NCBI RefSeq assembly: GCF_014905135.1
Contig: NZ_CP041406.1
Coordinates: 930,001 to 994,000, forward strand
Direction of reading: 5' to 3'
Length of the DNA: 64,000 bases
Source of the DNA: Sulfurimonas paralvinellae
Lineage (GTDB): Bacteria > Campylobacterota > Campylobacteria > Campylobacterales > Sulfurimonadaceae
Shown: piece by piece, positions 17,741 to 28,902 of the stretch
Layout: each line of letters starts with the position of its first letter
Position numbering within the stretch: the first letter of the stretch is position 1
The notes under the pieces: model-generated
Seen by the model: only the letters and a program-made list of their open reading frames with translations
Told to the model about the DNA's origin: nothing
Databases searched by the model: none
Program-made: the position numbers and the translations under genes

Positions 17741-19524
17741 AAATAAAATTTATAATTTTACTTTTTGCATCAGTCTGGCTGGCACTTCTTGTACGTGTTT
17801 TTTTTCTTGCTGTAGAGTCCAACAGTTACTACTCAAGACTTTCACAGCAAAATACAATAAAGCATGAAAAGATAGCACCGGTTCGCGGAGAGATAGTCGA
17901 TACAAAAAACAGACCTATAGCCATAAACAAACTGGGCTTTAAGGTACAGCTTGCACCACATCTACTGACCAAGAAATATAAAAATGAGTTTGAAGAAGAG
18001 GTTGCGATTTTAACAAAACTGCTGCCATCACTTGACAAAGAAAAAATCATTAAAAATTATAAAAAGAAAGATTCCTTTTATAATCACAATTTTATTGATG
18101 TTGTACAGTTTATTCCTTATGAAGAGATGATGCCTGTATACTCGGTACTCAATCTAAGAAAAAATATGAAAATAGTTTCTGCACCAAAACGCTATTATCC
18201 TTACAAGAATATAGCTGCACATATGATAGGGTATGTAGCACGCGCAAACCAAAAAGATATTGATAGAAATCAAGTACTGGATCTTATTGGTTATACCGGT
18301 AAAACAGGTATAGAAAAATATTACAATGATTACCTGCAGGGAAATCCGGGTGAGCGTGAGATAAAAGTGAATGCGAATAATCAGGAGATAGAACAGTTAT
18401 CCTACAAAAGTCCGCAGGAAGATAGAAAGCTGACACTCAGCATGGATATAGAATTACAAAAGTATATATCTTCGCTCTTTTTGGGAAGAGTCGGTGCTTT
18501 TGTCGTTATGAAGGTTGACGGCTCCATTCTTGCTGCAGGAAGTTTTCCAAACTATGATCTGAATATATTTGTAAACGGTATGAGCTATAAGATGTATAAT
18601 AAGCTCTCATCAAGTCTGGATCACCCTTTTACAAACAAATTGACGCATGGGCTCTATCCTCCCGGATCGTCTATTAAACCGCTTTTAGGCCTTTTGTATA
18701 TTACCACGAAGCTAAATGAACGATGGAGTGTGGACTGTCGTTCAAATTTACGAATCGCCAATAGAACTTTTCGCTGTTGGAAAGCAAAAGGTCACCGTCA
18801 TACGGATATCGTAAAAGCTATTCGTGAGAGTTGCGATGACTATTTTTACGAAGGCAGTCTTATTCTAGGTAATGAGGCTATGAGTAAAGGCCTTAAACGT
18901 TATGGTTTTGGTGAAAAGACGGGCGTTGATATGCCCAATGAATTCATCGGTGTAGTGCCGTCACGTTTATGGAAGCTTAGAAAATACAATCGTTCCTGGA
19001 ACATTGGAGAGACGGCTAATATGTCGATAGGACAAGGGGACTTTCTTGTAACTCCATTGCAGATCGCACGTGAGACAGCTTTAGTAGCAACCGGAAAACT
19101 TGTGACACCGCATTTTGCGAAATATATTGGCGATGAACCTTATAAAGTGAAATATAAGGATGTATTGACACAAAAAGAGAAGAGAAAACTTCCTATTATA
19201 CGTAAAGCAATGTATCAGGTCTGTAACTCCCCGCATGGGACGGCGACAAATTATTTAAGTTCAAAAGTGACAATATCTGGAAAAACCGGAACGGCACAGG
19301 TGATTGGAATTAAACAGGATATAGAAAAAAGAAAGCTTGAGCATGAACTCTCTTACTATAACCGTTCTCATGCATGGTTTACAACCTATGGACCTTCAAA
19401 GAAACCACAGTATATTGTGACTGTTATGGTAGAGCATGGCGGGCATGGTGGACATGCCGCCGGTAAGATTGTCTCAGATATATACAATAAGCTGTTGGAG
19501 CTTGGGTATATTAAGAAGCGTTGA
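17737..19524 (+). CDS. mrdA: penicillin-binding protein 2 (elongasome transpeptidase)
   Basis: A class B PBP of 595 residues that cross-links peptidoglycan during side-wall growth. One N-terminal TM (residues 3-23) is followed by the PBP dimerisation domain, including APVRGEIVDTKNRPIA, and then the transpeptidase domain. The nucleophile motif SSIK is at S311-K314 and KTG at 516-518 in SGKTGTAQ. It ends the plus-strand run and overlaps the convergent TgpA-like gene by 14 bp. Confidence 0.94.
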   Translation: MKIKFIILLFASVWLALLVRVFFLAVESNSYYSRLSQQNTIKHEKIAPVRGEIVDTKNRPIAINKLGFKVQLAPHLLTKKYKNEFEEEVAILTKLLPSLDKEKIIKNYKKKDSFYNHNFIDVVQFIPYEEMMPVYSVLNLRKNMKIVSAPKRYYPYKNIAAHMIGYVARANQKDIDRNQVLDLIGYTGKTGIEKYYNDYLQGNPGEREIKVNANNQEIEQLSYKSPQEDRKLTLSMDIELQKYISSLFLGRVGAFVVMKVDGSILAAGSFPNYDLNIFVNGMSYKMYNKLSSSLDHPFTNKLTHGLYPPGSSIKPLLGLLYITTKLNERWSVDCRSNLRIANRTFRCWKAKGHRHTDIVKAIRESCDDYFYEGSLILGNEAMSKGLKRYGFGEKTGVDMPNEFIGVVPSRLWKLRKYNRSWNIGETANMSIGQGDFLVTPLQIARETALVATGKLVTPHFAKYIGDEPYKVKYKDVLTQKEKRKLPIIRKAMYQVCNSPHGTATNYLSSKVTISGKTGTAQVIGIKQDIEKRKLEHELSYYNRSHAWFTTYGPSKKPQYIVTVMVEHGGHGGHAAGKIVSDIYNKLLELGYIKKR

Positions 19525-22084
19525 TTTTCCCTTTGGAAAACAGAAGTACAATGTAAAAAACAAAGCTAATGTAGGGAATAAATAGCAAAATACTCCACCA
19601 TCCTGATTTCCCCATATCTTTAAGTCTTTTAATGCTGAGAACCACCATAGAATAGGTGCATAAAAGTATGATAATAAGTGCCATTGCATAGCTGATCGGT
19701 TCAAATGGATTGATTTTGAACAAGATCATGACTATACCAATAAGAAATGAGAGAACCCCCAGGGTATTTATCATTAAGCTGCGACGAAAAAATGTACCTC
19801 TGTCTATGGTGCTGTTTGTAAGGAAATACCTTCGGATAACATTATCTTGATCGATATTTTTATATTTAAAAAATTTTCTAGCTATGAAAATATCAAAAGG
19901 TTCCAAATCAAAAGGCATATTTACAAGAAATAGAGCAGCTTCAAGATATCGGCTCTTATCAAAGTCAATATCTACCTCTCCATTGTAAATAGCCTGATTC
20001 GAATAAAAACTTATATACTCTATTAGATAGCTGTTCTCAGGCATTAATGTTTGAATGTAACGTGCATATTCCTGTAGCGTAAAGTTTGCTTTTTGCCCTT
20101 TATGAAAATGGCTATAATATTTTTCTACTTCTTTATAAGCGGCGATAACAAAGTCTACATTGTTTTTTTGAGCATGTTTTTCTATACGGTTTTTTGCTGT
20201 ATATGTCCAGAAATATTTTCTGGCATAATACAAAAATACAACTAAAAAAGAGAAAAAGATTACAACAAGTGGTATCAATTGTGTTTTGGTAAGCAGTCTC
20301 TCTTCTATCTTTTTGTCTGTTTTTTCTCCTTTAAAAGGGATATCGTCCGCTGCGTGAAAACTGACCCAGCCTATCCCTTTGACAAAGACTTCAGTCCATA
20401 CTGCTTTGTTTTTACTTTCAATCAGATAGGAGTGTGTGGCTAGATTGTACTCTCCAGGAGCATAACCTGTGACAAGTCTGGCGTATTCACCTGTGGAACG
20501 AAGCATAATGACAAGGGCTGAATTAAACTGCAAAGCGTTTCCTGTTTTTGTCTTAAAAAGCATTTCTGAGAGTGTCTGATTTTGTATCGGGCTGTTTATG
20601 GAAGCGTGTTGGTAAAAGTAGTTCATTTTAAAATAGTTGATTATACTTTGCGCTTTTTCAAATGAATTATCCCCTCTTTTTGTAATATATCTGGCCAATT
20701 TGTAGATCTTTGGATCAGAATGATATCCCGGTCTGGAGTATGCCTTTTTGTACCAGACATCAGCATAGCTGATAACATCGTGTCTATAATATTTATCTCT
20801 TTCTACGCATGCCGTATAATAAGTGCCGGTTTCAAGTTGTGACGGAGCATAAATGGTTCTTGCGGCATCTTCATAAAAGGTGTCCGATGGAAACTGTAGT
20901 CTCAGCAGACCTTCAGGAGTGTATATAATGGGTTTTCCGGAGAGCTTTCCTTTGACAGTAATGGTGTAGTTGTCACTCTGTTTTGTAAAATATTCGTTGT
21001 AATAAAATTCATTGGGCTTAAAAGGCCGTGTTCGCTTTTGCCATTTTTTGCCATTCCAATAATCATAATAGTCTCTACTGTTTCGTTGAATGGTATACAT
21101 TTTTGTCAAAACTTTTTTCCAGCTTTTTCCGTTAAATGATGCATAGGTTTCACCGCGTAAAAATCGTGCCTCTTTGCCTTTTACCTTAAAGAGTATTCTG
21201 TTTGAACTTTTGCTTGAGCCATCACGTATGCTGGAATAATAAGCCCGTTTGTTCTTCTCTTTTAATTTTCTTTCGAAAATAATGTTATGTTCTTGATCTG
21301 TTTTGAGTGAAGCAGTTGAGTGTTTCATATTGCTATGAAAAGGCAAGGTGAGCGAAGAGTGCGCTGTTGTACTGCCATCTTTTGTGTAGCTAGGCAGGTC
21401 TGTGACCCTTTCTTTATGATCTTTGTTCTTTGTATTGCTCTCTCCGCTTACTCCCTTATACTCTTTTTTACCGCCAAAAGGCAAAATACCATAGTGTATA
21501 GCTTTTGGCTGCGGCAATAGATAGTATAAAAGGGCAGTTAAAATAGAGACCACTATAAGAAGTGTAAAAGTCGTTCCGAAAAAATGTGTGTTTGTTTTAT
21601 AATTATATGCAGTGTGGAGTTGCAATCTTGCAGTGTAATACTCAGCTACAACTACGGTGAGAAAGGAAAAAGTAAAGAGTATGATACTCACAACTGAATA
21701 TTTGTTGGAGATGATGGAACTTGCATACAAAAAAAGTAAGAATGAAAAGATTAGAAGATATGCCAACATCCTTCTCTCACGCAAGGAGATATTTACCCCT
21801 GTTATGACCGAAAGCGAAACAATCAATATACCGATATCTGAGTTATAGTTCATAAAGTAACGAACAGAAAAGGCTATACCTATGAGCATACCAATATAAC
21901 CGATATTTTTTATGGTCTTAGCATGTTTTTCGGCAAAAAACCATGAAAGCAGCAGCGAAGCTGCCAAAAGAAAAAGAATAGCAGCTGTAATAATGCTGTT
22001 TCCGGCATATATGTCATTAGAGACCATAAAGGCCGGGATGGCTTCACAAAAGAAAAGGGCGATGTAGAGTGTCGGTGTTTTCAA
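19511..22084 (-). CDS. TgpA-type transglutaminase-fold membrane protein, catalytic triad lost, with C-terminal DUF805
   Basis: An 857-residue membrane protein. Roughly six N-terminal TM helices (about 1-215) are followed by a periplasmic region with a transglutaminase-like domain (about 465-580), one TM (about 605-625), a DUF4129-like cytoplasmic part, and a DUF805-like end (KRLKDMGKSGWW). In active TgpA proteins the catalytic Cys lies in a GYCEHFASA-like motif. Here the aligned segment is GNALQFNSA, with Ala517 in place of Cys. The usual AHAWVEV is KAVWTEV (Ala561 for His), and GWVRVDPT is GWVSFHAAD (His577 for Asp). The frame is intact, so it is a pseudoenzyme rather than a pseudogene. It overlaps the DUF58 gene by 4 bp. 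Confidence 0.85.
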   Translation of the reverse strand: MKTPTLYIALFFCEAIPAFMVSNDIYAGNSIITAAILFLLAASLLLSWFFAEKHAKTIKNIGYIGMLIGIAFSVRYFMNYNSDIGILIVSLSVITGVNISLRERRMLAYLLIFSFLLFLYASSIISNKYSVVSIILFTFSFLTVVVAEYYTARLQLHTAYNYKTNTHFFGTTFTLLIVVSILTALLYYLLPQPKAIHYGILPFGGKKEYKGVSGESNTKNKDHKERVTDLPSYTKDGSTTAHSSLTLPFHSNMKHSTASLKTDQEHNIIFERKLKEKNKRAYYSSIRDGSSKSSNRILFKVKGKEARFLRGETYASFNGKSWKKVLTKMYTIQRNSRDYYDYWNGKKWQKRTRPFKPNEFYYNEYFTKQSDNYTITVKGKLSGKPIIYTPEGLLRLQFPSDTFYEDAARTIYAPSQLETGTYYTACVERDKYYRHDVISYADVWYKKAYSRPGYHSDPKIYKLARYITKRGDNSFEKAQSIINYFKMNYFYQHASINSPIQNQTLSEMLFKTKTGNALQFNSALVIMLRSTGEYARLVTGYAPGEYNLATHSYLIESKNKAVWTEVFVKGIGWVSFHAADDIPFKGEKTDKKIEERLLTKTQLIPLVVIFFSFLVVFLYYARKYFWTYTAKNRIEKHAQKNNVDFVIAAYKEVEKYYSHFHKGQKANFTLQEYARYIQTLMPENSYLIEYISFYSNQAIYNGEVDIDFDKSRYLEAALFLVNMPFDLEPFDIFIARKFFKYKNIDQDNVIRRYFLTNSTIDRGTFFRRSLMINTLGVLSFLIGIVMILFKINPFEPISYAMALIIILLCTYSMVVLSIKRLKDMGKSGWWSILLFIPYISFVFYIVLLFSKGKINAS

Positions 22085-23277
22085 AGAAACATCCTTTGGA
22101 TGTCACATCCTTTTTTGAGTGTGTATTTATTATATTTCGGGTGATTGTTCAAAGTGAAATTTTCATCGGTTTTATTATTTATAAAACTCTCTGCCTGAAT
22201 ATCAAACAAAACAGGTTTTGAGGACCTTGCACTCAAAAGATCTATGTTTTGTTCCACTTTACCGCTTCCATTGTCAAATAAAATAAGTGTACCGCCTTTT
22301 TTAAGACCATGAAAGTATTTTACTGCATCAAGATAGCGTACATCTCCATTGCCTTTGACATGGGCTAAGGCCTTGAGTATTTCCATCTGATTGTGTGACC
22401 CTTTGATGTCAATGAGCTTTATTTCCTCTTCATCTTTACCGAAGATACTCACGCTGTAGCCATTGTCAAGACCATAAACAGCGAGCGATGCGGCAATGCT
22501 TATGGCATATTCGAGTGTTGTCTCAGTAAAAGAACCTCTATTGAACTCTTTATCTAAATCAAGCATTATAATTAAGCTCGATGATAAAAAATCCTGATAC
22601 TCTCTTACGATGAGTTCACCTTTTTTTGCACTGCTAGGCCAGTGAATATGGCGTGGAGAATCGCCACGTTTATATTCTCTGATAGATACAAACTCTCCTT
22701 CTCCTCCTTTTTTCTTGCTTTTGTTCTCTCCATAAAGCATAGCATACTCATCGCTTATAAAAGGAAAGTGAATTACTTCCAGTGGTTTTGGATAGACAAC
22801 AATCTCGCCTTTTGTCTCTTCGAAGGTTTTGCTGAAAGTTTGAAGCCCCATAGGAAATCCTGTTTGTATGATTAGAGGACCTATTGAATGCACACCGCGC
22901 AGCTCTAGTGACAACTCGCTCTTTATTGTCAGTTTGCTATTGAGTACTTTTACAAAAAACATATGCTTTTCATTGGAAGAAAATGGTGTTGGCAGCCAAA
23001 GTTCAAGAAAGAACTTGTTAAAAAAATTAGCTGAGGAGAGTTCTATACTTATAGGCATGGATTTTCTCTGCTGAGCATATTTTGGATGCTTCAAAGACGC
23101 ATGAATCCCCAGTAGATTAAAATAGGGTGCTATCAAAGATAAAATGAGCATAGATAAGGAGAGTTCAGCTATAACATAGAGAAGCTCAATACCTCTGTTC
23201 ACGGCAATCAGATAGATGATGACAAAGGTTGTAAATAGTAGTATGACGATTTTATTTTTTGCAAAGAATTGCAGCAT
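22081..23277 (-). CDS. DUF58 domain protein (MoxR-associated, vWA-like)
   Basis: A 398-residue protein with two TM helices near the N-terminus (about 10-50). The DUF58 signature is seen as REYKRGDSPRHIHWPSSAKKG, followed by VREYQDF and MLDLD. DUF58 proteins usually work with MoxR ATPases and TgpA-like membrane proteins; the molecular role is poorly known. It overlaps the TgpA-like gene by 4 bp and abuts moxR, so the three are a tight operon. Confidence 0.9.
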   Translation of the reverse strand: MLQFFAKNKIVILLFTTFVIIYLIAVNRGIELLYVIAELSLSMLILSLIAPYFNLLGIHASLKHPKYAQQRKSMPISIELSSANFFNKFFLELWLPTPFSSNEKHMFFVKVLNSKLTIKSELSLELRGVHSIGPLIIQTGFPMGLQTFSKTFEETKGEIVVYPKPLEVIHFPFISDEYAMLYGENKSKKKGGEGEFVSIREYKRGDSPRHIHWPSSAKKGELIVREYQDFLSSSLIIMLDLDKEFNRGSFTETTLEYAISIAASLAVYGLDNGYSVSIFGKDEEEIKLIDIKGSHNQMEILKALAHVKGNGDVRYLDAVKYFHGLKKGGTLILFDNGSGKVEQNIDLLSARSSKPVLFDIQAESFINNKTDENFTLNNHPKYNKYTLKKGCDIQRMFL

Positions 23278-24200
23278 TACTTGGGAACTTCTATCTTTGC
23301 CAGTACATCAGCGATGATGTCTTCATTTGTCAAACTTGCGCTGTATTGTGGTTTAATAACAATGCGATGAGATAAAACAGGTACGGCAATCCTTTTGATG
23401 ATATCGGGGTCGACAAAATCTTTTTTTTCTACAAGAGCAAAAGCTTTTGAAGCGTGCATTAAAGCAAGTGAACCTCTCGGACTTGCTCCGTAAGCCAGAG
23501 AGTTGTGTTTGCGAAGTGCCTGCATAATTAATGCGATGTACTTTAAGACGATTTTATCTATTTTAATATTGAGGACTTGTTTTTGCAGCTCCAAAAGTTC
23601 CTGTGACGATATAACGGGCTTCAGGTTCTCTATTGGATGTTCTTTTTCCTGCATCTGCATGATTTCTATCTCATCTTCTACCGTTGGATAACCCATGCCG
23701 ATTTTCATAAAAAAGCGGTCAAGCTGTGCTTCTGGAAGCGGGTAGGTACCATGGAACTCTATCGGGTTTTGTGTAGCTATTACCATAAAAGGAGAGGGGA
23801 GTTTATATGTTTTTCCATCTACAGTAACTTGCTCCTCCTCCATCGCTTCAAGCATACTTGATTGTGTTCGCGGTGTAGTACGGTTTATCTCATCAACTAA
23901 AAGGATATTTGTAAAAATTGGCCCGGCTTTAAATTCGAAACTTCTTTCCTGTTCATTATAGATAGAGACACCCGTAATGTCCGATGGCAAAAGGTCGGGA
24001 GTACACTGGACGCGTTTCAATCGTGTACTTATGGATTTTGAAAGTGCTCTTGCAAGGATGGTTTTTCCCAATCCCGGAGTATCTTCTATGAGGATGTGTC
24101 CTTTTGCCAAAAGAGAAACAATAAGCAATTTGATAGGTTCCTCTTTGCCGACTATGACGCTTTGTATATTTTTAATGAGTTTATTTAAATTATGTGACAT
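23277..24200 (-). CDS. MoxR-family AAA+ ATPase
   Basis: A 307-residue AAA+ chaperone-like ATPase. Walker A is EDTPGLGKT (GLGKT at residues 43-47), Walker B ILLVDEINR, and the sensor region VIATQNPIEF. The C-terminal lid contains AYGASPRGSLAL, typical of MoxR. It shares one base with the DUF58 gene and lies 20 bp after the YWTD/cytochrome gene. MoxR proteins are thought to mature or regulate partners with vWA/DUF58 domains. Confidence 0.94.
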   Translation of the reverse strand: MSHNLNKLIKNIQSVIVGKEEPIKLLIVSLLAKGHILIEDTPGLGKTILARALSKSISTRLKRVQCTPDLLPSDITGVSIYNEQERSFEFKAGPIFTNILLVDEINRTTPRTQSSMLEAMEEEQVTVDGKTYKLPSPFMVIATQNPIEFHGTYPLPEAQLDRFFMKIGMGYPTVEDEIEIMQMQEKEHPIENLKPVISSQELLELQKQVLNIKIDKIVLKYIALIMQALRKHNSLAYGASPRGSLALMHASKAFALVEKKDFVDPDIIKRIAVPVLSHRIVIKPQYSASLTNEDIIADVLAKIEVPK

Positions 24201-24220: not shown

Positions 24221-25876
24221 TTACTGCCAAGCAGTAATAGCTTGAGATATTTGTTCGAGTTCTGTATCAGAGTAGCGTACCACCTGTCCCTTCATAACGC
24301 CTTTCATAGGACCTCCGTAAGTGCCGTTTTTGTAGCCTTTTAGGGCTTGATAGATATCTTTCTGCGACATATTTCTAACAATTTTTGATTTACCTAAAGC
24401 AGCGCGGGACCAGTTTTGCCCATGACAGGCAAGACAGCTTTTTAATTTTGGAATAATGGTGAGATTATTGCTTTTAGCGATTATCTTTTTTTGCTTCATT
24501 TCATTTTTTTTGGAAACTATGAATTGGTTGTTGAAAAATGAAAAGGAGTCAAGAGAGTTTTGATTTGTTTTTTCTATTTCTCTTCCATCTAGATCTGTTA
24601 TTTCTAAAATAAATTGATTATGCTGGGCATTGTTGGCATCTGTTTGCAGACGAAGATACCCAAAGAGAAGATGATTGTTTGTTGTGTCTATGGAAACTGT
24701 AGCCAGTATTTTCTTCTCTCCGTTAGCCGGTATGATGATTTTTTTATCGGAACCGTCTAGGTTTGCGCTGTAAACATCATTGTCTGCCCAGATGACTCTA
24801 TGGTTGACGTTATCCACAACAATGCCTGCAGGGCGATTTGAAGAGACTACTTTTTGTAGCTCTTTTGTATTTAAATTAAGCGTAACAATCTGATGATTTG
24901 TTCCGTCGCTGATATAGAGTTTATCGTCAGCATCATTATAAAACAAGCCTTCAACAGAACGCAAGAGGGCTCTGTTTGAAAAAAGTATGGTCTTGTTATT
25001 CCCGTTGAAATCAGAAGAGACAATATCGTGATGTTTTCTTTGGGTATTCCACTGTGCAGAGTAGATTTTCTCTCTTTTGTTGTCAATCGCAAGACCGGCT
25101 GCTAAAATTGGTAATGCCATTATTCTTCTACTGTTTGTTCCGTCCAGATTCGCTTTAAATAAGCCAGGATCATTTACTCTGTTTACCCAGTAAAGCGCTC
25201 CGTATTTATCTACATTACAGGCCATTGTTTGTTTATTAAAAATATCAACTACTTTTGTTTGATTGCTAATGTCTTTCGTATTGGATAGGTAAATCCCGTT
25301 ATACTCAACAAGACAAAGGTTGTATTTTGATTGTACAGTAGCTGTTTTTTGAGAAGTTCTGTTGTTATCATTTTTTATAATGGAGCTGATTTTTTTATCA
25401 TTAGCGATGTAAAATAAAATAACAAGACCGGCAGCAGACGTCAGGATGTTGAAATAGGGTACTTTTCTTTTGGAAGTTCGTTCAGACTCTGTTGCTTTTT
25501 CAACACTCTTCTTTTTAGGCTGCTTTACTGCTCTTTCTTTGGGAGATTTTATGCTTGTGTCGGCTAAAACTTTCAGTGCATCTCTGAGTGTACTTATCAC
25601 TACTTGGTTATTGTATGGATTATCTTCTATGGAGAGCAGATCCCAACCATCATCTGATTTGTAGAGCTTAATCTCTATATTTGTGTCTCTATAGTGAAAG
25701 ATCCAGATAACTTCAGAGTCGCTCAGTTCTTTTACCGGAAGCAGCCAATTCCCTGTACTCTTATCTATGGTCCAGTGATGTTCATACGCACCGTTTGTAT
25801 GGTTATATTGATTCCAGAGTTCATCTAATTGAAACTTGCTTGCGTCGCTTTGTGATACATTTTCATTTATAAACAT
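24221..25876 (-). CDS. membrane protein with YWTD-like propeller repeats and a C-terminal c-type cytochrome domain
   Basis: A 551-residue protein with an unusual order of parts. A cytoplasmic N-terminal region of about 140 residues resembles nothing I can name. One TM helix (about 145-165) follows. A periplasmic set of YWTD/NHL-like propeller repeats comes next (KYGALYWVNR, KREKIYSAQW, ADDKLYISDG, VNHRVIWADN), and last a class I cytochrome c domain. The heme motif is C481-L-A-C484-H485 (SCLACHG), and GGPMKGVMKG supplies a likely axial Met, as in epsilonproteobacterial c553. It lies between telA and moxR. A heme-bearing sensor or redox partner is possible but unproven. Confidence 0.82.
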   Translation of the reverse strand: MFINENVSQSDASKFQLDELWNQYNHTNGAYEHHWTIDKSTGNWLLPVKELSDSEVIWIFHYRDTNIEIKLYKSDDGWDLLSIEDNPYNNQVVISTLRDALKVLADTSIKSPKERAVKQPKKKSVEKATESERTSKRKVPYFNILTSAAGLVILFYIANDKKISSIIKNDNNRTSQKTATVQSKYNLCLVEYNGIYLSNTKDISNQTKVVDIFNKQTMACNVDKYGALYWVNRVNDPGLFKANLDGTNSRRIMALPILAAGLAIDNKREKIYSAQWNTQRKHHDIVSSDFNGNNKTILFSNRALLRSVEGLFYNDADDKLYISDGTNHQIVTLNLNTKELQKVVSSNRPAGIVVDNVNHRVIWADNDVYSANLDGSDKKIIIPANGEKKILATVSIDTTNNHLLFGYLRLQTDANNAQHNQFILEITDLDGREIEKTNQNSLDSFSFFNNQFIVSKKNEMKQKKIIAKSNNLTIIPKLKSCLACHGQNWSRAALGKSKIVRNMSQKDIYQALKGYKNGTYGGPMKGVMKGQVVRYSDTELEQISQAITAWQ

Positions 25877-25923: not shown

Positions 25924-27075
25924 TTATATTTCTAAGTTTGGTACTTTGGAAGCTGTTATGTTCTCTATCGCCTCGACTTCTTGTATCTTATTTTCCAGTT
26001 TTTGGCTGATATCTCGCATGACGGAGACTTCTTCTTTTGCCTGCTTTAATGCTTCTGACTTTAATGTATTTATTTTTGTCATAGCTTCATCAATATGTGC
26101 AAATGCTTCTTTAAGTGAAGCGACATTGAGCGTTGCTTCTCCTGCTTTTTTGTAGATTTCCGTTCCTTGTTCGTTCATACGTTTTGCATTGCCTACGATA
26201 AGCTCATTGGTAGCTTCTTTTGTTTTTTCGACCGCTTCGATGACATTCTTTTGGTTCTCAAGGGCTACCAGCATACTGACACCTATCTCAAGCGCTCTTT
26301 TTGTTACGACTTTGACGTTGGAGATGTTATCTATAAGCTCCCAGTTCGTATTAATAATAAAATCGTTTGAAAGAAAACTCTCCTGTGTCACTATAAGAAT
26401 TTCGTAGATGCTTCGTATCTTTTTTTGAAGATTTAACATAAGATTGTTTACATAAAACTCTTTTTCTTTTTCATCAAGATTTTCTATGTTTTCTTCAATT
26501 GCATTGATAACGTGCTGCATGACAAGAGCTTTTCTCTGCAGGTTGATAGCTGCTTTTTTATAGCGTTCTTTATCGTGCTGTAGAACAACGTTGTCGTCAC
26601 GAAGGAGCTTCTCTCCCTCATCAAGAGAGTTTAAAATCTCATCTATAAGCTCTGAAGCCGATTTGAATTTTGTGAGATATCTGTTTATTGGTGTGCCTAT
26701 GAACGGCAGCATTGAAAAAAAGCTTTTTGCAGAGAGGTTGTGTTTGTTTGGATTGATGTCGGATATCTCATTACTGAGCGTCACAAGTGTTTTCGCAATA
26801 TCATTAGACTGCGTATCATCTATTGACTGCATATCTGATATTTTACTTCCAAGAAGCTCTGATGAGTTCTCAAGTGACTCAACATCTTCAAGTGTTACGC
26901 TCTCAAGAATACCTCTAATCTCACTTTTGTCTTTTCCTTCAAAAAATCCCAAGAACTCTTTTGCTTTTTCTTTAATGCTTGCAAGCTCGTCAGAAGAGAG
27001 TTTATCTTCAAAAACAGTCACCTCTTCTGTATTCGTTATTTCATTTTGTCCAATGGATTTTTTAATGTCCGTCAT
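25924..27075 (-). CDS. telA: TelA-family protein (toxic anion resistance family)
   Basis: A 383-residue, helical, cytoplasmic protein. The TelA family pattern is seen in FFSMLPFIGTPINRYLTKF, VLQHDKERYKKAAINLQRK and TNWELIDNISNVKVVTKRALEIG. TelA proteins were first linked to tellurite resistance and are often encoded beside XpaC-like membrane proteins; their function is unclear. Downstream is the YWTD/cytochrome gene, and 6 bp upstream the two-TM gene. Confidence 0.88.
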   Translation of the reverse strand: MTDIKKSIGQNEITNTEEVTVFEDKLSSDELASIKEKAKEFLGFFEGKDKSEIRGILESVTLEDVESLENSSELLGSKISDMQSIDDTQSNDIAKTLVTLSNEISDINPNKHNLSAKSFFSMLPFIGTPINRYLTKFKSASELIDEILNSLDEGEKLLRDDNVVLQHDKERYKKAAINLQRKALVMQHVINAIEENIENLDEKEKEFYVNNLMLNLQKKIRSIYEILIVTQESFLSNDFIINTNWELIDNISNVKVVTKRALEIGVSMLVALENQKNVIEAVEKTKEATNELIVGNAKRMNEQGTEIYKKAGEATLNVASLKEAFAHIDEAMTKINTLKSEALKQAKEEVSVMRDISQKLENKIQEVEAIENITASKVPNLEI

Positions 27076-27081
27076 ATGTTT

Positions 27082-27744
27082 TTACCTTTTTTTGATTTTA
27101 CTTACTATTTGGGTTGAGTGCTCAAACTCATTGAGAAGCATATCTATCTTTTTATCATTGTTGTTTTTACTCATAAGTTCTTCTATCAGGTTTTCCAAGC
27201 TCGCTTCTATAGCAACATTTTGTTCTATGTTCTTTTGAATTTCACTTTTGTAGAGCTCTCTCTTTGTTTCGTCTGAGCTTAGAGAGAAGGCTTTTGTCAG
27301 TCTATCTTTTATTTTTAAATTTTCAAGATACAAAGAGAGGGATGTATTGGCAATATTGACAACCCTTACAGTCAGTAAACTTTTACTAGAAAATTTTTCT
27401 TTCATAAAAGCAGTGATAAGATCAATTTTTGAAAAAATATTGTCTTTGATGTCAAGTCCGTATTGCAATGTTGCATTATGCCGCAACAGTTTGTATTTCT
27501 CCTCTTCTCTTGCATAGGCATAGTTTTGTTTATGTTTTTTAAAAAGGATATAGCATAGAACAAAACATAGAATGCTAAAGAGTGACAACACATTAAATAT
27601 ACTGATATCAAAAGATGATAAATTTAGAAACATAATGGATAAAGCATAACTGTATACTACGGTAAATGATGCTAAAAAAGCATACAGCAAAAGCCGCTGC
27701 CGTCTAAAAAAATATAAAATCAGGTCCAAAGTATAAACATCCAA
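27082..27744 (-). CDS. two-TM membrane protein next to telA (XpaC-like by position)
   Basis: A 220-residue protein with two TM helices (about 18-42 and 48-67) and a long helical cytoplasmic tail. I cannot assign a family from the sequence. In other bacteria the gene beside telA is often xpaC-like, with a similar TM-plus-helical layout, so that is the best guess from context. The only start that keeps the TM region is a TTG at 27744; an in-frame stop lies shortly upstream. It heads the six-gene minus-strand run. Confidence 0.65.
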   Translation of the reverse strand: MDVYTLDLILYFFRRQRLLLYAFLASFTVVYSYALSIMFLNLSSFDISIFNVLSLFSILCFVLCYILFKKHKQNYAYAREEEKYKLLRHNATLQYGLDIKDNIFSKIDLITAFMKEKFSSKSLLTVRVVNIANTSLSLYLENLKIKDRLTKAFSLSSDETKRELYKSEIQKNIEQNVAIEASLENLIEELMSKNNNDKKIDMLLNEFEHSTQIVSKIKKR

Positions 27745-27837: not shown

Positions 27838-28902
27838 ATGATTGATTATCAAGAGGCATTTAAAAAAAGAGTTTTTATCTTATTTTTACTGATTCTTATT
27901 ATAACACCAATCACCGTTATCTATTTGGGTAAAAAGAGCAGCACCCTAAATGAGAAAGCTCCCGGCTTGTCTGTAAAAAATAGTTTCGCACTTCATTTAC
28001 GGGGGTCTGTACAAGATATAAAGCTTTCAAAAAACTCAAAAACCGCATATACAGCAGCAGGAAGCAGAGGCATTTATATACTCGATGTTGAGAACTCAAT
28101 GAAGCCAAAGCTGATAGGGCAGTTTAAATACTTCAGTAACTCCTATGACAAAGCCAGAAGCGTAGAACTTGCAGAAGAGAGAAATATGCTTTTTGTCAAA
28201 GATGCACAGGCAGGCATATATAGTATTGATATAACAAATCCTGTAGAACCCAAACTCCTAGATACCTATAAATCAGAAAATCCTATATATGCCTTTTGTC
28301 TCTCAGAAGATTTAAAAACTATTTACATAGCTGATAAAAAAGGGATTGCAGTTGCAGATATTCAAGATCCTGATGCTATCAACGTAATTGCTTATCACAG
28401 TATAGAAAAAAGATATATCAATCTCATTGAGGTCAACAAAAATACGCTTTATCTTTTGTGCGAAAGCGGCATAGATATTCTATACACAGATGGATCTCAA
28501 CCGGCAAAGCTGATCGGTAGTTATACAACAGCCGGTGATGCAAAGAAAATGACACTTTCAAAAGACAAAACAAAAGCATTTGTTTCAATCGGAAATAGCG
28601 GCGTAGAAATATTAGATATTGCCAACAAACTATATCCAAAACCTCTTGGAATATTTAAAACGTCTGCCGCTGCAGATAAAACAATAGTATCAAGAAATGC
28701 AAAGATCATTTATGTGGCTGATACCAATGGAGATATTGAGATAGCAGATATTCAAAACCCCGACAGCGGGGAATTGTTACAAAAGATAAGAACTAAACTA
28801 TCTGCTCAGGAAAAATTATGGGATATTGCTTTGTCTGTGGATGAAAAGAAGCTTTTTACAGCTTCAGGTATTGAAGGTGTAAGAGTTGTCAAGCTGAAAT
28901 AG
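27838..28902 (+). CDS. membrane-anchored LVIVD-repeat beta-propeller protein
   Basis: A 354-residue protein with an N-terminal TM/signal anchor (residues 12-30). Six or seven repeats of about 42 residues follow, with patterns such as SRGIYILDVENSMKPKLIG, QAGIYSIDITNPVEPKLLD and NSGVEILDIANKLYPKPLG. These are LVIVD repeats that form a periplasmic propeller. The role is unknown, probably protein-protein interaction. It is divergent from the six-gene run (93 bp apart) and convergent with the antiporter gene. Confidence 0.85.
   Translation: MIDYQEAFKKRVFILFLLILIITPITVIYLGKKSSTLNEKAPGLSVKNSFALHLRGSVQDIKLSKNSKTAYTAAGSRGIYILDVENSMKPKLIGQFKYFSNSYDKARSVELAEERNMLFVKDAQAGIYSIDITNPVEPKLLDTYKSENPIYAFCLSEDLKTIYIADKKGIAVADIQDPDAINVIAYHSIEKRYINLIEVNKNTLYLLCESGIDILYTDGSQPAKLIGSYTTAGDAKKMTLSKDKTKAFVSIGNSGVEILDIANKLYPKPLGIFKTSAAADKTIVSRNAKIIYVADTNGDIEIADIQNPDSGELLQKIRTKLSAQEKLWDIALSVDEKKLFTASGIEGVRVVKLK

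What the first reader, a model, noticed from the sequence alone, without database searches (positions are those of the whole stretch)
24221..25876. YWTD-like propeller, TM anchor and c-type cytochrome in one protein
Seen: a cytoplasmic N-terminal domain, one TM helix, propeller-type repeats, then C481xxC484H485 and a GGPMKG Met-ligand region. Inference: a periplasmic sensor or electron-transfer protein whose signal could pass to the cytoplasmic side. I do not know a characterised protein with this order.
Basis: partly seen in the sequence, partly recalled or inferred. Interest (0 to 1): 0.52.

Follow-up and report, generated by a model that had tools for sequence, protein, structure and literature searches.

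The report
Anchored propeller-cytochrome in a stress operon
A bacterial membrane protein really does join an inside domain related to toxin-immunity proteins, one membrane span, a receptor-like propeller and a respiratory cytochrome, and it sits in a conserved cell-envelope stress gene cluster, so it may let the cell read its outer surroundings or their redox state.

Summary
The ORF at 24221-25876(-) encodes 551 aa: an N-terminal domain (1-106), one TM helix (142-162, N-in), a YWTD/LDL-receptor-type propeller (181-455; model Z 29.0 to LRP4) and a complete c553-type cytochrome c (478-547; gapless match to Desulfovibrio c553, E 3.6e-16). One correction: the axial Met is probably M528, not the M524 of GGPM. 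Three things were missed. (1) The gene lies inside a tight operon: small TM protein, TelA, this gene, MoxR, DUF58, transglutaminase, with a divergent anchored LVIVD propeller. Sulfurospirillum arcachonense has the same cluster, but two relatives of this gene there have no heme. (2) The N-domain belongs to a standalone family encoded beside, or fused to, a toxin-like domain, once on an XVIPCD T4SS effector, so it is probably immunity-derived. (3) The cytochrome resembles the genus's own secreted c553. Best reading: a variable periplasmic sensor/adaptor of a TelA/MoxR envelope-stress module that gained a redox (heme) domain in this lineage. Function is inferred; heme binding and signalling are untested. 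New variant of known kinds, not a new class.

The parts
24221..25876 (-). P0001, 551 aa: immunity-like N-domain, TM, YWTD propeller, cytochrome c553
25559..25876 (-). N-terminal domain, residues 1-106 (alpha-beta5-alpha in the model, pLDDT 81); standalone relatives are immunity-like
25391..25453 (-). TM helix, residues 142-162, preceded by a K/R-rich stretch
24512..25336 (-). YWTD/LDLR-b type propeller, residues 181-455
24236..24445 (-). class I cytochrome c (c553 type), residues 478-547
24422..24436 (-). heme motif C481-LA-C484-H485
24293..24295 (-). M528, probable axial heme ligand
25924..27075 (-). TelA (toxic anion resistance family), 383 aa
   Evidence: PF05816 131.9 bits, cut-off 30
27082..27744 (-). 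small TM protein, 220 aa, constant partner of this TelA; XpaC-like by position only, no Pfam hit
23277..24200 (-). MoxR AAA+ ATPase, 307 aa
   Evidence: AAA_3 215 bits, AAA_lid_2 72.6 bits
22081..23277 (-). DUF58 protein, 398 aa
   Evidence: PF01882 45.5 bits
19511..22084 (-). membrane transglutaminase-like protein (TgpA-like) with C-terminal DUF805, 857 aa from a TTG start
   Evidence: Transglut_core 64.9 bits, DUF805 43.3 bits
27838..28902 (+). N-terminally anchored LVIVD propeller protein, 354 aa, divergent, kept beside TelA in relatives

Best explanation
P0001 is the variable, membrane-anchored periplasmic sensor/adaptor of an envelope-stress module made of a small TM protein, TelA, MoxR, DUF58 and a membrane transglutaminase. 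Shown by sequence or model: one membrane span with a small immunity-family domain in the cytoplasm and a YWTD-type propeller plus a c553-type cytochrome in the periplasm; membership of a closely packed gene cluster conserved across two families. Inferred: the propeller binds a periplasmic protein or ligand; the cytochrome carries covalent heme and exchanges electrons with the local c-type cytochrome pool, so the receptor's state depends on periplasmic redox; a change on the periplasmic side is passed to, or scaffolds, TelA/MoxR through the N-domain. The heme module was added in this lineage, apparently from the genus's own secreted c553; the chassis exists without it in Sulfurospirillum.
For: Six same-strand genes with gaps of 47 bp or less, two pairs overlapping. 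The same cluster in Sulfurospirillum arcachonense (L044 = L120) with identities MoxR 85%, TelA 81%, DUF58 65%, TGase 62%, small TM protein 60%, LVIVD 51%, P0001 39%: the machinery is conserved, the anchored part varies. S. arcachonense has two P0001-type genes, one with two propellers and one with a different outer part, both keeping the N-domain and a TM and neither with CXXCH. All 8 loci inspected with TelA at 43% identity or more (window, L044, L101-L106) carry the small TM gene and a TM-anchored LVIVD-like protein (limits of the LVIVD calls under Tried and rejected). Cytochrome 55-67% identical to 29 secreted c553 proteins, 24 of their 29 invariant positions kept. Own genome has a cytochrome c assembly protein (PF01578). 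Precedents: PFNA operon pkb2-fn3-MoxR-DUF58-tgm with a surface protein upstream of the same three genes, proposed to recognise host signals (PMC8430577, passages); a TelA disruption in Listeria raises nisin and tellurite sensitivity (PMC12791056, passages).
Against: No expression, heme or phenotype data. MoxR-DUF58-TGase accompanies TelA in only 2 of the 8 close loci, so the module is not fixed. The full architecture with cytochrome was found in one genome only (1 of 228 family genomes; none of the other 4 matching genomes among 397 of the phylum), so selection on the heme domain cannot be measured; its branch is long (1.07). No known output domain on the cytoplasmic side. The own genome lacks the toxin-like partner of the N-domain family, which leaves that domain's role open.
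Confidence: 0.45

Rival explanations
1. A tethered electron carrier, like Rhodobacter cyt cy: the TM anchors, the propeller acts as docking spacer, and the c553 domain shuttles electrons between membrane complexes.
For: Cytochrome complete and close to the genus's c553 carriers; cyt cy is TM + 69-residue linker + cytochrome domain (PMC7876108, passages); own genome has 15 places matching the Cytochrome_CBB3 profile.
Against: The operon has no respiratory genes; heme-less relatives keep the rest; a cytoplasmic domain and a propeller are not needed for shuttling; the unfused c553 is also present (L002).
Confidence: 0.2
2. A membrane-tethered immunity protein: the cytoplasmic N-domain neutralises a toxin at the inner membrane, and the propeller and cytochrome are accessory or anchoring parts.
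For: N-domain relatives sit directly upstream of an XVIPCD (T4SS) effector with a toxin-like domain, flank a homologous toxin-like ORF in L109, lie 10 bp from one in L108 and share an ORF with one in G532.
Against: No toxin-like partner in G000 or G380; N-domain only 27-28% identical to the L121 immunity-like proteins; does not explain propeller, heme or operon.
Confidence: 0.15
3. A periplasmic dehydrogenase of quinohemoprotein type: substrate oxidised on the propeller, electrons passed to the fused cytochrome.
For: Propeller + C-terminal cytochrome order is known for quinohemoprotein dehydrogenases (recalled); weak SGL/gluconolactonase match, E 0.062.
Against: Best folds are protein-binding YWTD receptors; no PQQ or dehydrogenase family at E 1 or better; heme-less relatives with tandem propellers.
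Confidence: 0.1
4. A recent accidental fusion in which the cytochrome adds nothing to a working propeller receptor.
For: Heme domain absent from every other N-domain/TM/propeller relative found; long branch.
Against: Heme site and 24 of 29 invariant positions intact; a second, separate TM-anchored protein of the genus (G127, L035 8111-10441) also ends in such a domain.
Confidence: 0.1

Closest known systems
LDL-receptor class B (YWTD) propellers of LRP4, LRP6, LDLR, nidogen
   Same: Propeller fold, Z 26-29 over about 245-250 residues; Pfam Ldl_recept_b above cut-off
   Different: Bacterial, single, no EGF-like neighbour found, YWTD motif degenerate (YWVN 229, YISD 321), fused to a cytochrome
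Cytochrome c553 (Desulfovibrio) and secreted c553 of the same genus
   Same: Complete domain, CXXCH, aligned Met, 55-67% to the genus's carriers
   Different: No own signal peptide; C-terminal module of an anchored protein
Cyt cy of Rhodobacter capsulatus
   Same: TM-tethered cytochrome c
   Different: Propeller in place of the linker, extra cytoplasmic domain, non-respiratory operon
PFNA operon of bifidobacteria (pkb2-fn3-aaa-duf58-tgm)
   Same: Surface-protein gene directly before MoxR, DUF58, transglutaminase in that order
   Different: No kinase, no FN3; TelA and small TM protein instead
MoxR-vWA-beta-propeller ternary systems (PMC7159879)
   Same: MoxR, a globular N-domain with a TM segment, propellers
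   Different: MoxR has an ordinary P-loop (GLGKT, not GXXXTAKS) and the DUF58 protein has no propeller
Immunity proteins of XVIPCD T4SS effectors (X-Tfi)
   Same: Same sequence family as the genes upstream of such an effector in L121
   Different: Fused to TM, propeller and heme; no toxin partner in the genome
Cytochrome cd1 nitrite reductase and quinohemoprotein dehydrogenases (recalled)
   Same: Cytochrome c plus propeller in one periplasmic protein; a cd1-like ORF is in this genome (L131; naming recalled)
   Different: Different propeller type, no anchor with cytoplasmic domain

Membership tests
YWTD/LDLR-b propeller | Sequence repeat family and six-bladed fold | tested here: met
   Pfam 26.3 bits vs 21; Z 29.0 to LRP4; 23 strands 187-436
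YWTD/LDLR-b propeller | YWTD motif in each blade | tested here: not met
   Only YWVN 229 and YISD 321 matched a loose pattern; I therefore say YWTD-type
Class I cytochrome c (c553) | CXXCH, gapless alignment over the domain, axial Met | tested here: met
Class I cytochrome c (c553) | Covalent heme, redox activity | not testable with these tools
   PF01578 assembly protein present in the genome makes it possible
TelA family (neighbouring gene) | PF05816 above cut-off | tested here: met
   131.9 bits vs 30
XpaC family (small TM partner) | Pfam match | tested here: not met
   No XpaC hit at E 1 for the window gene or the S. arcachonense one
PFNA operon | MoxR, DUF58, TGase in this order | tested here: met
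   gaps; definition
PFNA operon | pkb2 kinase and FN3 protein | tested here: not met
   No such family among the seven genes scanned; only a sub-cut-off fn3_5 match in P0001, 20.3 vs 27.6 bits
MoxR-vWA-beta-propeller ternary system | MoxR P-loop GXXXTAKS (described as frequent) | tested here: not met
   P-loop reads EDTPGLGKT; definition
MoxR-vWA-beta-propeller ternary system | vWA component with a C-terminal propeller | tested here: not met
   DUF58 protein gives DUF58 only; definition
Immunity protein family (N-domain) | Homologues encoded next to a toxin domain | tested here: met
   L121, L109, L108
Immunity protein family (N-domain) | Cognate toxin in the same genome | tested here: not met
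   No match in G000 or G380
Immunity protein family (N-domain) | Neutralises a toxin | not testable with these tools
   needs an assay
Cyt cy type tethered carrier | Electron transfer between respiratory complexes | not testable with these tools
   needs spectroscopy and mutants
Quinohemoprotein dehydrogenase / cytochrome cd1 | Enzyme-type propeller with PQQ or heme d1 | tested here: inconclusive
   No family match at E 1; not among the 50 best folds shown, which does not exclude it

The most novel reading that the evidence does not exclude
A redox-gated envelope receptor: a periplasmic propeller fused to a respiratory-type heme couples the state of the electron-transport chain to a TelA/MoxR stress machine, through a cytoplasmic domain borrowed from toxin-immunity proteins. 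It would be a one-component receptor whose sensory cofactor is a recruited electron carrier.
Probability: 0.2. Interest if true: 0.75.

Novelty: new variant of a known kind. Interest (0 to 1): 0.5.

Why it matters
TelA is known from envelope and bacteriocin stress, and the MoxR-DUF58-transglutaminase set from a proposed signal-recognition operon, but what feeds them is unknown. This cluster supplies a concrete candidate: conserved machinery with a fast-changing anchored propeller, and one version with a built-in heme. That makes the input side of both systems testable. It also shows an immunity-like domain used as the inside part of a membrane protein, and a soluble electron carrier turned into a module of anchored proteins in at least two genomes of one genus.

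Tried and rejected
Whole-protein search of genome contigs with P0001 alone found no relative. N-domain: no Pfam, NCBIfam or PDB-sequence family above cut-off; its model (pLDDT 81) has no clear fold match (Foldseek best E 0.14; best Z 6.0), which does not show a new fold. Plasmid search with the L108 N-domain found nothing; with L111 two Acinetobacter plasmids, whose neighbours included ordinary type II toxin-antitoxin genes but no recognised partner. L108_5515 against L121_5930: no significant pairwise match; L108_5515 against L109_4681 E 8e-4 and a profile hit E 1.6e-4 support it weakly. The toxin-like domain was found in only 4 of 8 N-domain genomes searched, one of them the query's own; G422 with nine N-domain places has none, so the immunity reading rests on the linked cases. 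In G532 the N-domain match is weak (E 0.005). Sister grouping of the P0001 and L007 cytochromes (92/84) may be long-branch attraction: with either left out the other moves, so 'two independent fusions' versus 'one fused lineage' is open. Distant TelA loci L107, L118, L119: 7 flanking proteins scanned, no propeller; other distant loci not inspected. PADLOC: nothing convincing (weak AAA matches to MoxR only). The anchored LVIVD-like proteins of L044 and L104 were not Pfam-scanned; they are called by 51% identity to the window's gene and by similarity to the L103 protein; L106's LVIVD score is under the cut-off (18.5 vs 20.2). Viral-contig scans with A5 and A4 found no relative. Organism: Sulfurimonas-like is my recall; the computed fact is same order as S. 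arcachonense. One search's match list was cut, so other cytochrome fusions in those 151 genomes cannot be excluded.

Full report
Observation. The ORF at 24221-25876 on the minus strand is intact (551 aa). It starts where its relatives start (M-FINE against MAFINE). CXXCH is at 481-485, and residues 478-545 align without gaps to D. vulgaris cytochrome c553 (E 3.6e-16). That Met57 is the ligand there is recalled. One TM helix (142-162) follows a K/R-rich stretch, so the N-terminus should be inside. Residues 181-455 model as a propeller of the LDL-receptor YWTD type, Z 29.0 to LRP4 over 248 residues, in agreement with sequence.

Surroundings. Six genes lie on the minus strand with gaps of 47, 20 and 6 bp and two overlaps: small TM protein (27082-27744), TelA (25924-27075), P0001, MoxR (23277-24200), DUF58 (22081-23277), transglutaminase-like (19511-22084); families. 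A TM-anchored LVIVD protein (27838-28902, +) is divergent. TelA of this kind is rare here: 2 of 228 genomes of the family, 19 of 397 of the phylum (weaker members included).

Relatives. A search with residues 1-469 matched 2 of 228 family genomes (the own one, and G094 by the propeller only) and 5 of 397 phylum genomes. One has two propellers; the other has a different outer part with a GDGI...DKNNNGKID stretch, weakly EF-hand-like. Neither has CXXCH. Identities fall from MoxR 85% and TelA 81% to P0001 39%. Standalone YWTD proteins occur in G439 (two, starting with a lipoprotein-like signal, my reading) and an anchored one in G546. In six further loci with TelA at 43-70% identity (L101-L106), the small TM gene and one or two anchored proteins are present. 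LVIVD scores over the cut-off in L101, L102, L103 and L105, under it in L106, and was not scanned in L104. MoxR-DUF58-TGase is beside TelA only in the window and S. arcachonense (2 of 8). So the repeated theme is a small TM protein and TelA with anchored propellers; the window is its most elaborate version seen. In three distant TelA loci none of 7 scanned flanking proteins was a propeller.

The N-domain. It belongs to a family of about 150-160 aa standalone proteins (15 of 397 phylum genomes have a match to profile A1). In a viral-collection contig (L121) two such genes stand directly upstream of a 958-aa protein with an XVIPCD (Pfam X-Tfes_XVIPCD, E 2.2e-24), the mark of antibacterial T4SS effectors (PMC10933484, abstract start and passages). 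The effector's N-terminal domain is homologous (E 7e-19) to an ORF of L109 that lies between two N-domain genes. A profile of the two finds the same domain in 4 of 8 N-domain genomes: the query's own G274, adjacent to the N-domain gene in G046 (L108), in the same ORF in G532, and near a contig end in G442; none in the own genome, S. arcachonense, G422 or G234. I infer an immunity-protein origin. Toxin neutralisation is untested, and at 27-28% identity to the L121 members the function may have changed to that of an adaptor. The model of the domain (alpha-beta5-alpha, pLDDT 81) has no clear PDB match.

The cytochrome. Of 31 loci fetched for cytochrome matches, 29 are secreted c553-like proteins of about 95 aa at 55-67% identity to P0001's domain; the other two are L003 (42%, used as outgroup) and L007. 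24 of the 29 positions invariant in the 29 proteins are kept. Equally close (67%) is L007, the C-terminus of another anchored protein of the genus (G127, L035 8111-10441: kinase-like start by my reading with no Pfam kinase hit, TM, Sel1 repeats, cytochrome). The tree joins P0001 with L007, but both branches are long and the placement changes when one is dropped. The domain therefore appears to come from the genus's own periplasmic carrier family, once or twice. A cytochrome c assembly protein is encoded in the genome.

How it probably works. Shown: domains, topology signals, operon layout, conservation of the machinery, variability of the anchored part. From literature: a TelA disruption in Listeria increases sensitivity to nisin fourfold and tellurite twofold (PMC12791056, passages); bifidobacterial PFNA operons place a surface protein before MoxR-DUF58-transglutaminase and are proposed to recognise host signals (PMC8430577, passages). 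Inferred: P0001 senses or scaffolds at the periplasmic face, the heme makes it responsive to or active in periplasmic electron transfer, and the N-domain links it to TelA/MoxR inside. I put this at 0.45. Rivals: a tethered electron carrier like cyt cy (PMC7876108, passages), a membrane-held immunity protein, a dehydrogenase, or an accidental fusion.

Known or new. Each part is known; cytochrome-plus-propeller proteins exist (a cd1-like one is in this very genome, L131; naming recalled), and tethered cytochromes exist. I found no paper describing this order or the TelA-propeller association (search listings; open-access papers only). The MoxR ternary conflict systems with propellers (PMC7159879, passages) were considered and two of their features are not met. 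I file it as a new variant of known kinds, worth a bench test for heme and for partner binding.

Noticed in passing
L035:8111-10441 (G127): 776-aa protein: kinase-like start, one TM, Sel1 repeats (seven stretches) and a C-terminal c553-type cytochrome with CXXCH; a second anchored-cytochrome fusion in the genus.
   Followed up: partly
L036:6579-8654 (G094): 691-aa protein: weak kinase match, TM, Sel1 repeats and a YWTD-type propeller; suggests shuffling of outer modules on anchored proteins.
   Followed up: partly
L044:8144-9793 = L120:4309-5958: 549-aa S. arcachonense sister of P0001 with the same N-domain and TM but a calcium-binding-like outer part (weak EF-hand match).
   Followed up: partly
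L121:4917-8806: Two immunity-like genes directly before an XVIPCD T4SS effector with an uncharacterised toxin-like domain on an IMG/VR contig.
   Followed up: partly
L109:4132-6154, L127:835-2202: The same toxin-like domain between two immunity-like genes in one Campylobacterales genome, and fused to such a domain plus a TM segment in another.
   Followed up: partly
L047 and other G422 loci: Nine places for the immunity-like family in one genome without a recognised toxin-like partner.
   Followed up: no
L131:157-1896 (G000:C1:664515 region): Cytochrome cd1-like protein in the window's genome, a classic cytochrome-plus-propeller protein (naming recalled).
   Followed up: no
window 27082-27744 and alignment A11: Small TM protein always beside this TelA (8 loci), no Pfam family found; a candidate new family.
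   Followed up: partly
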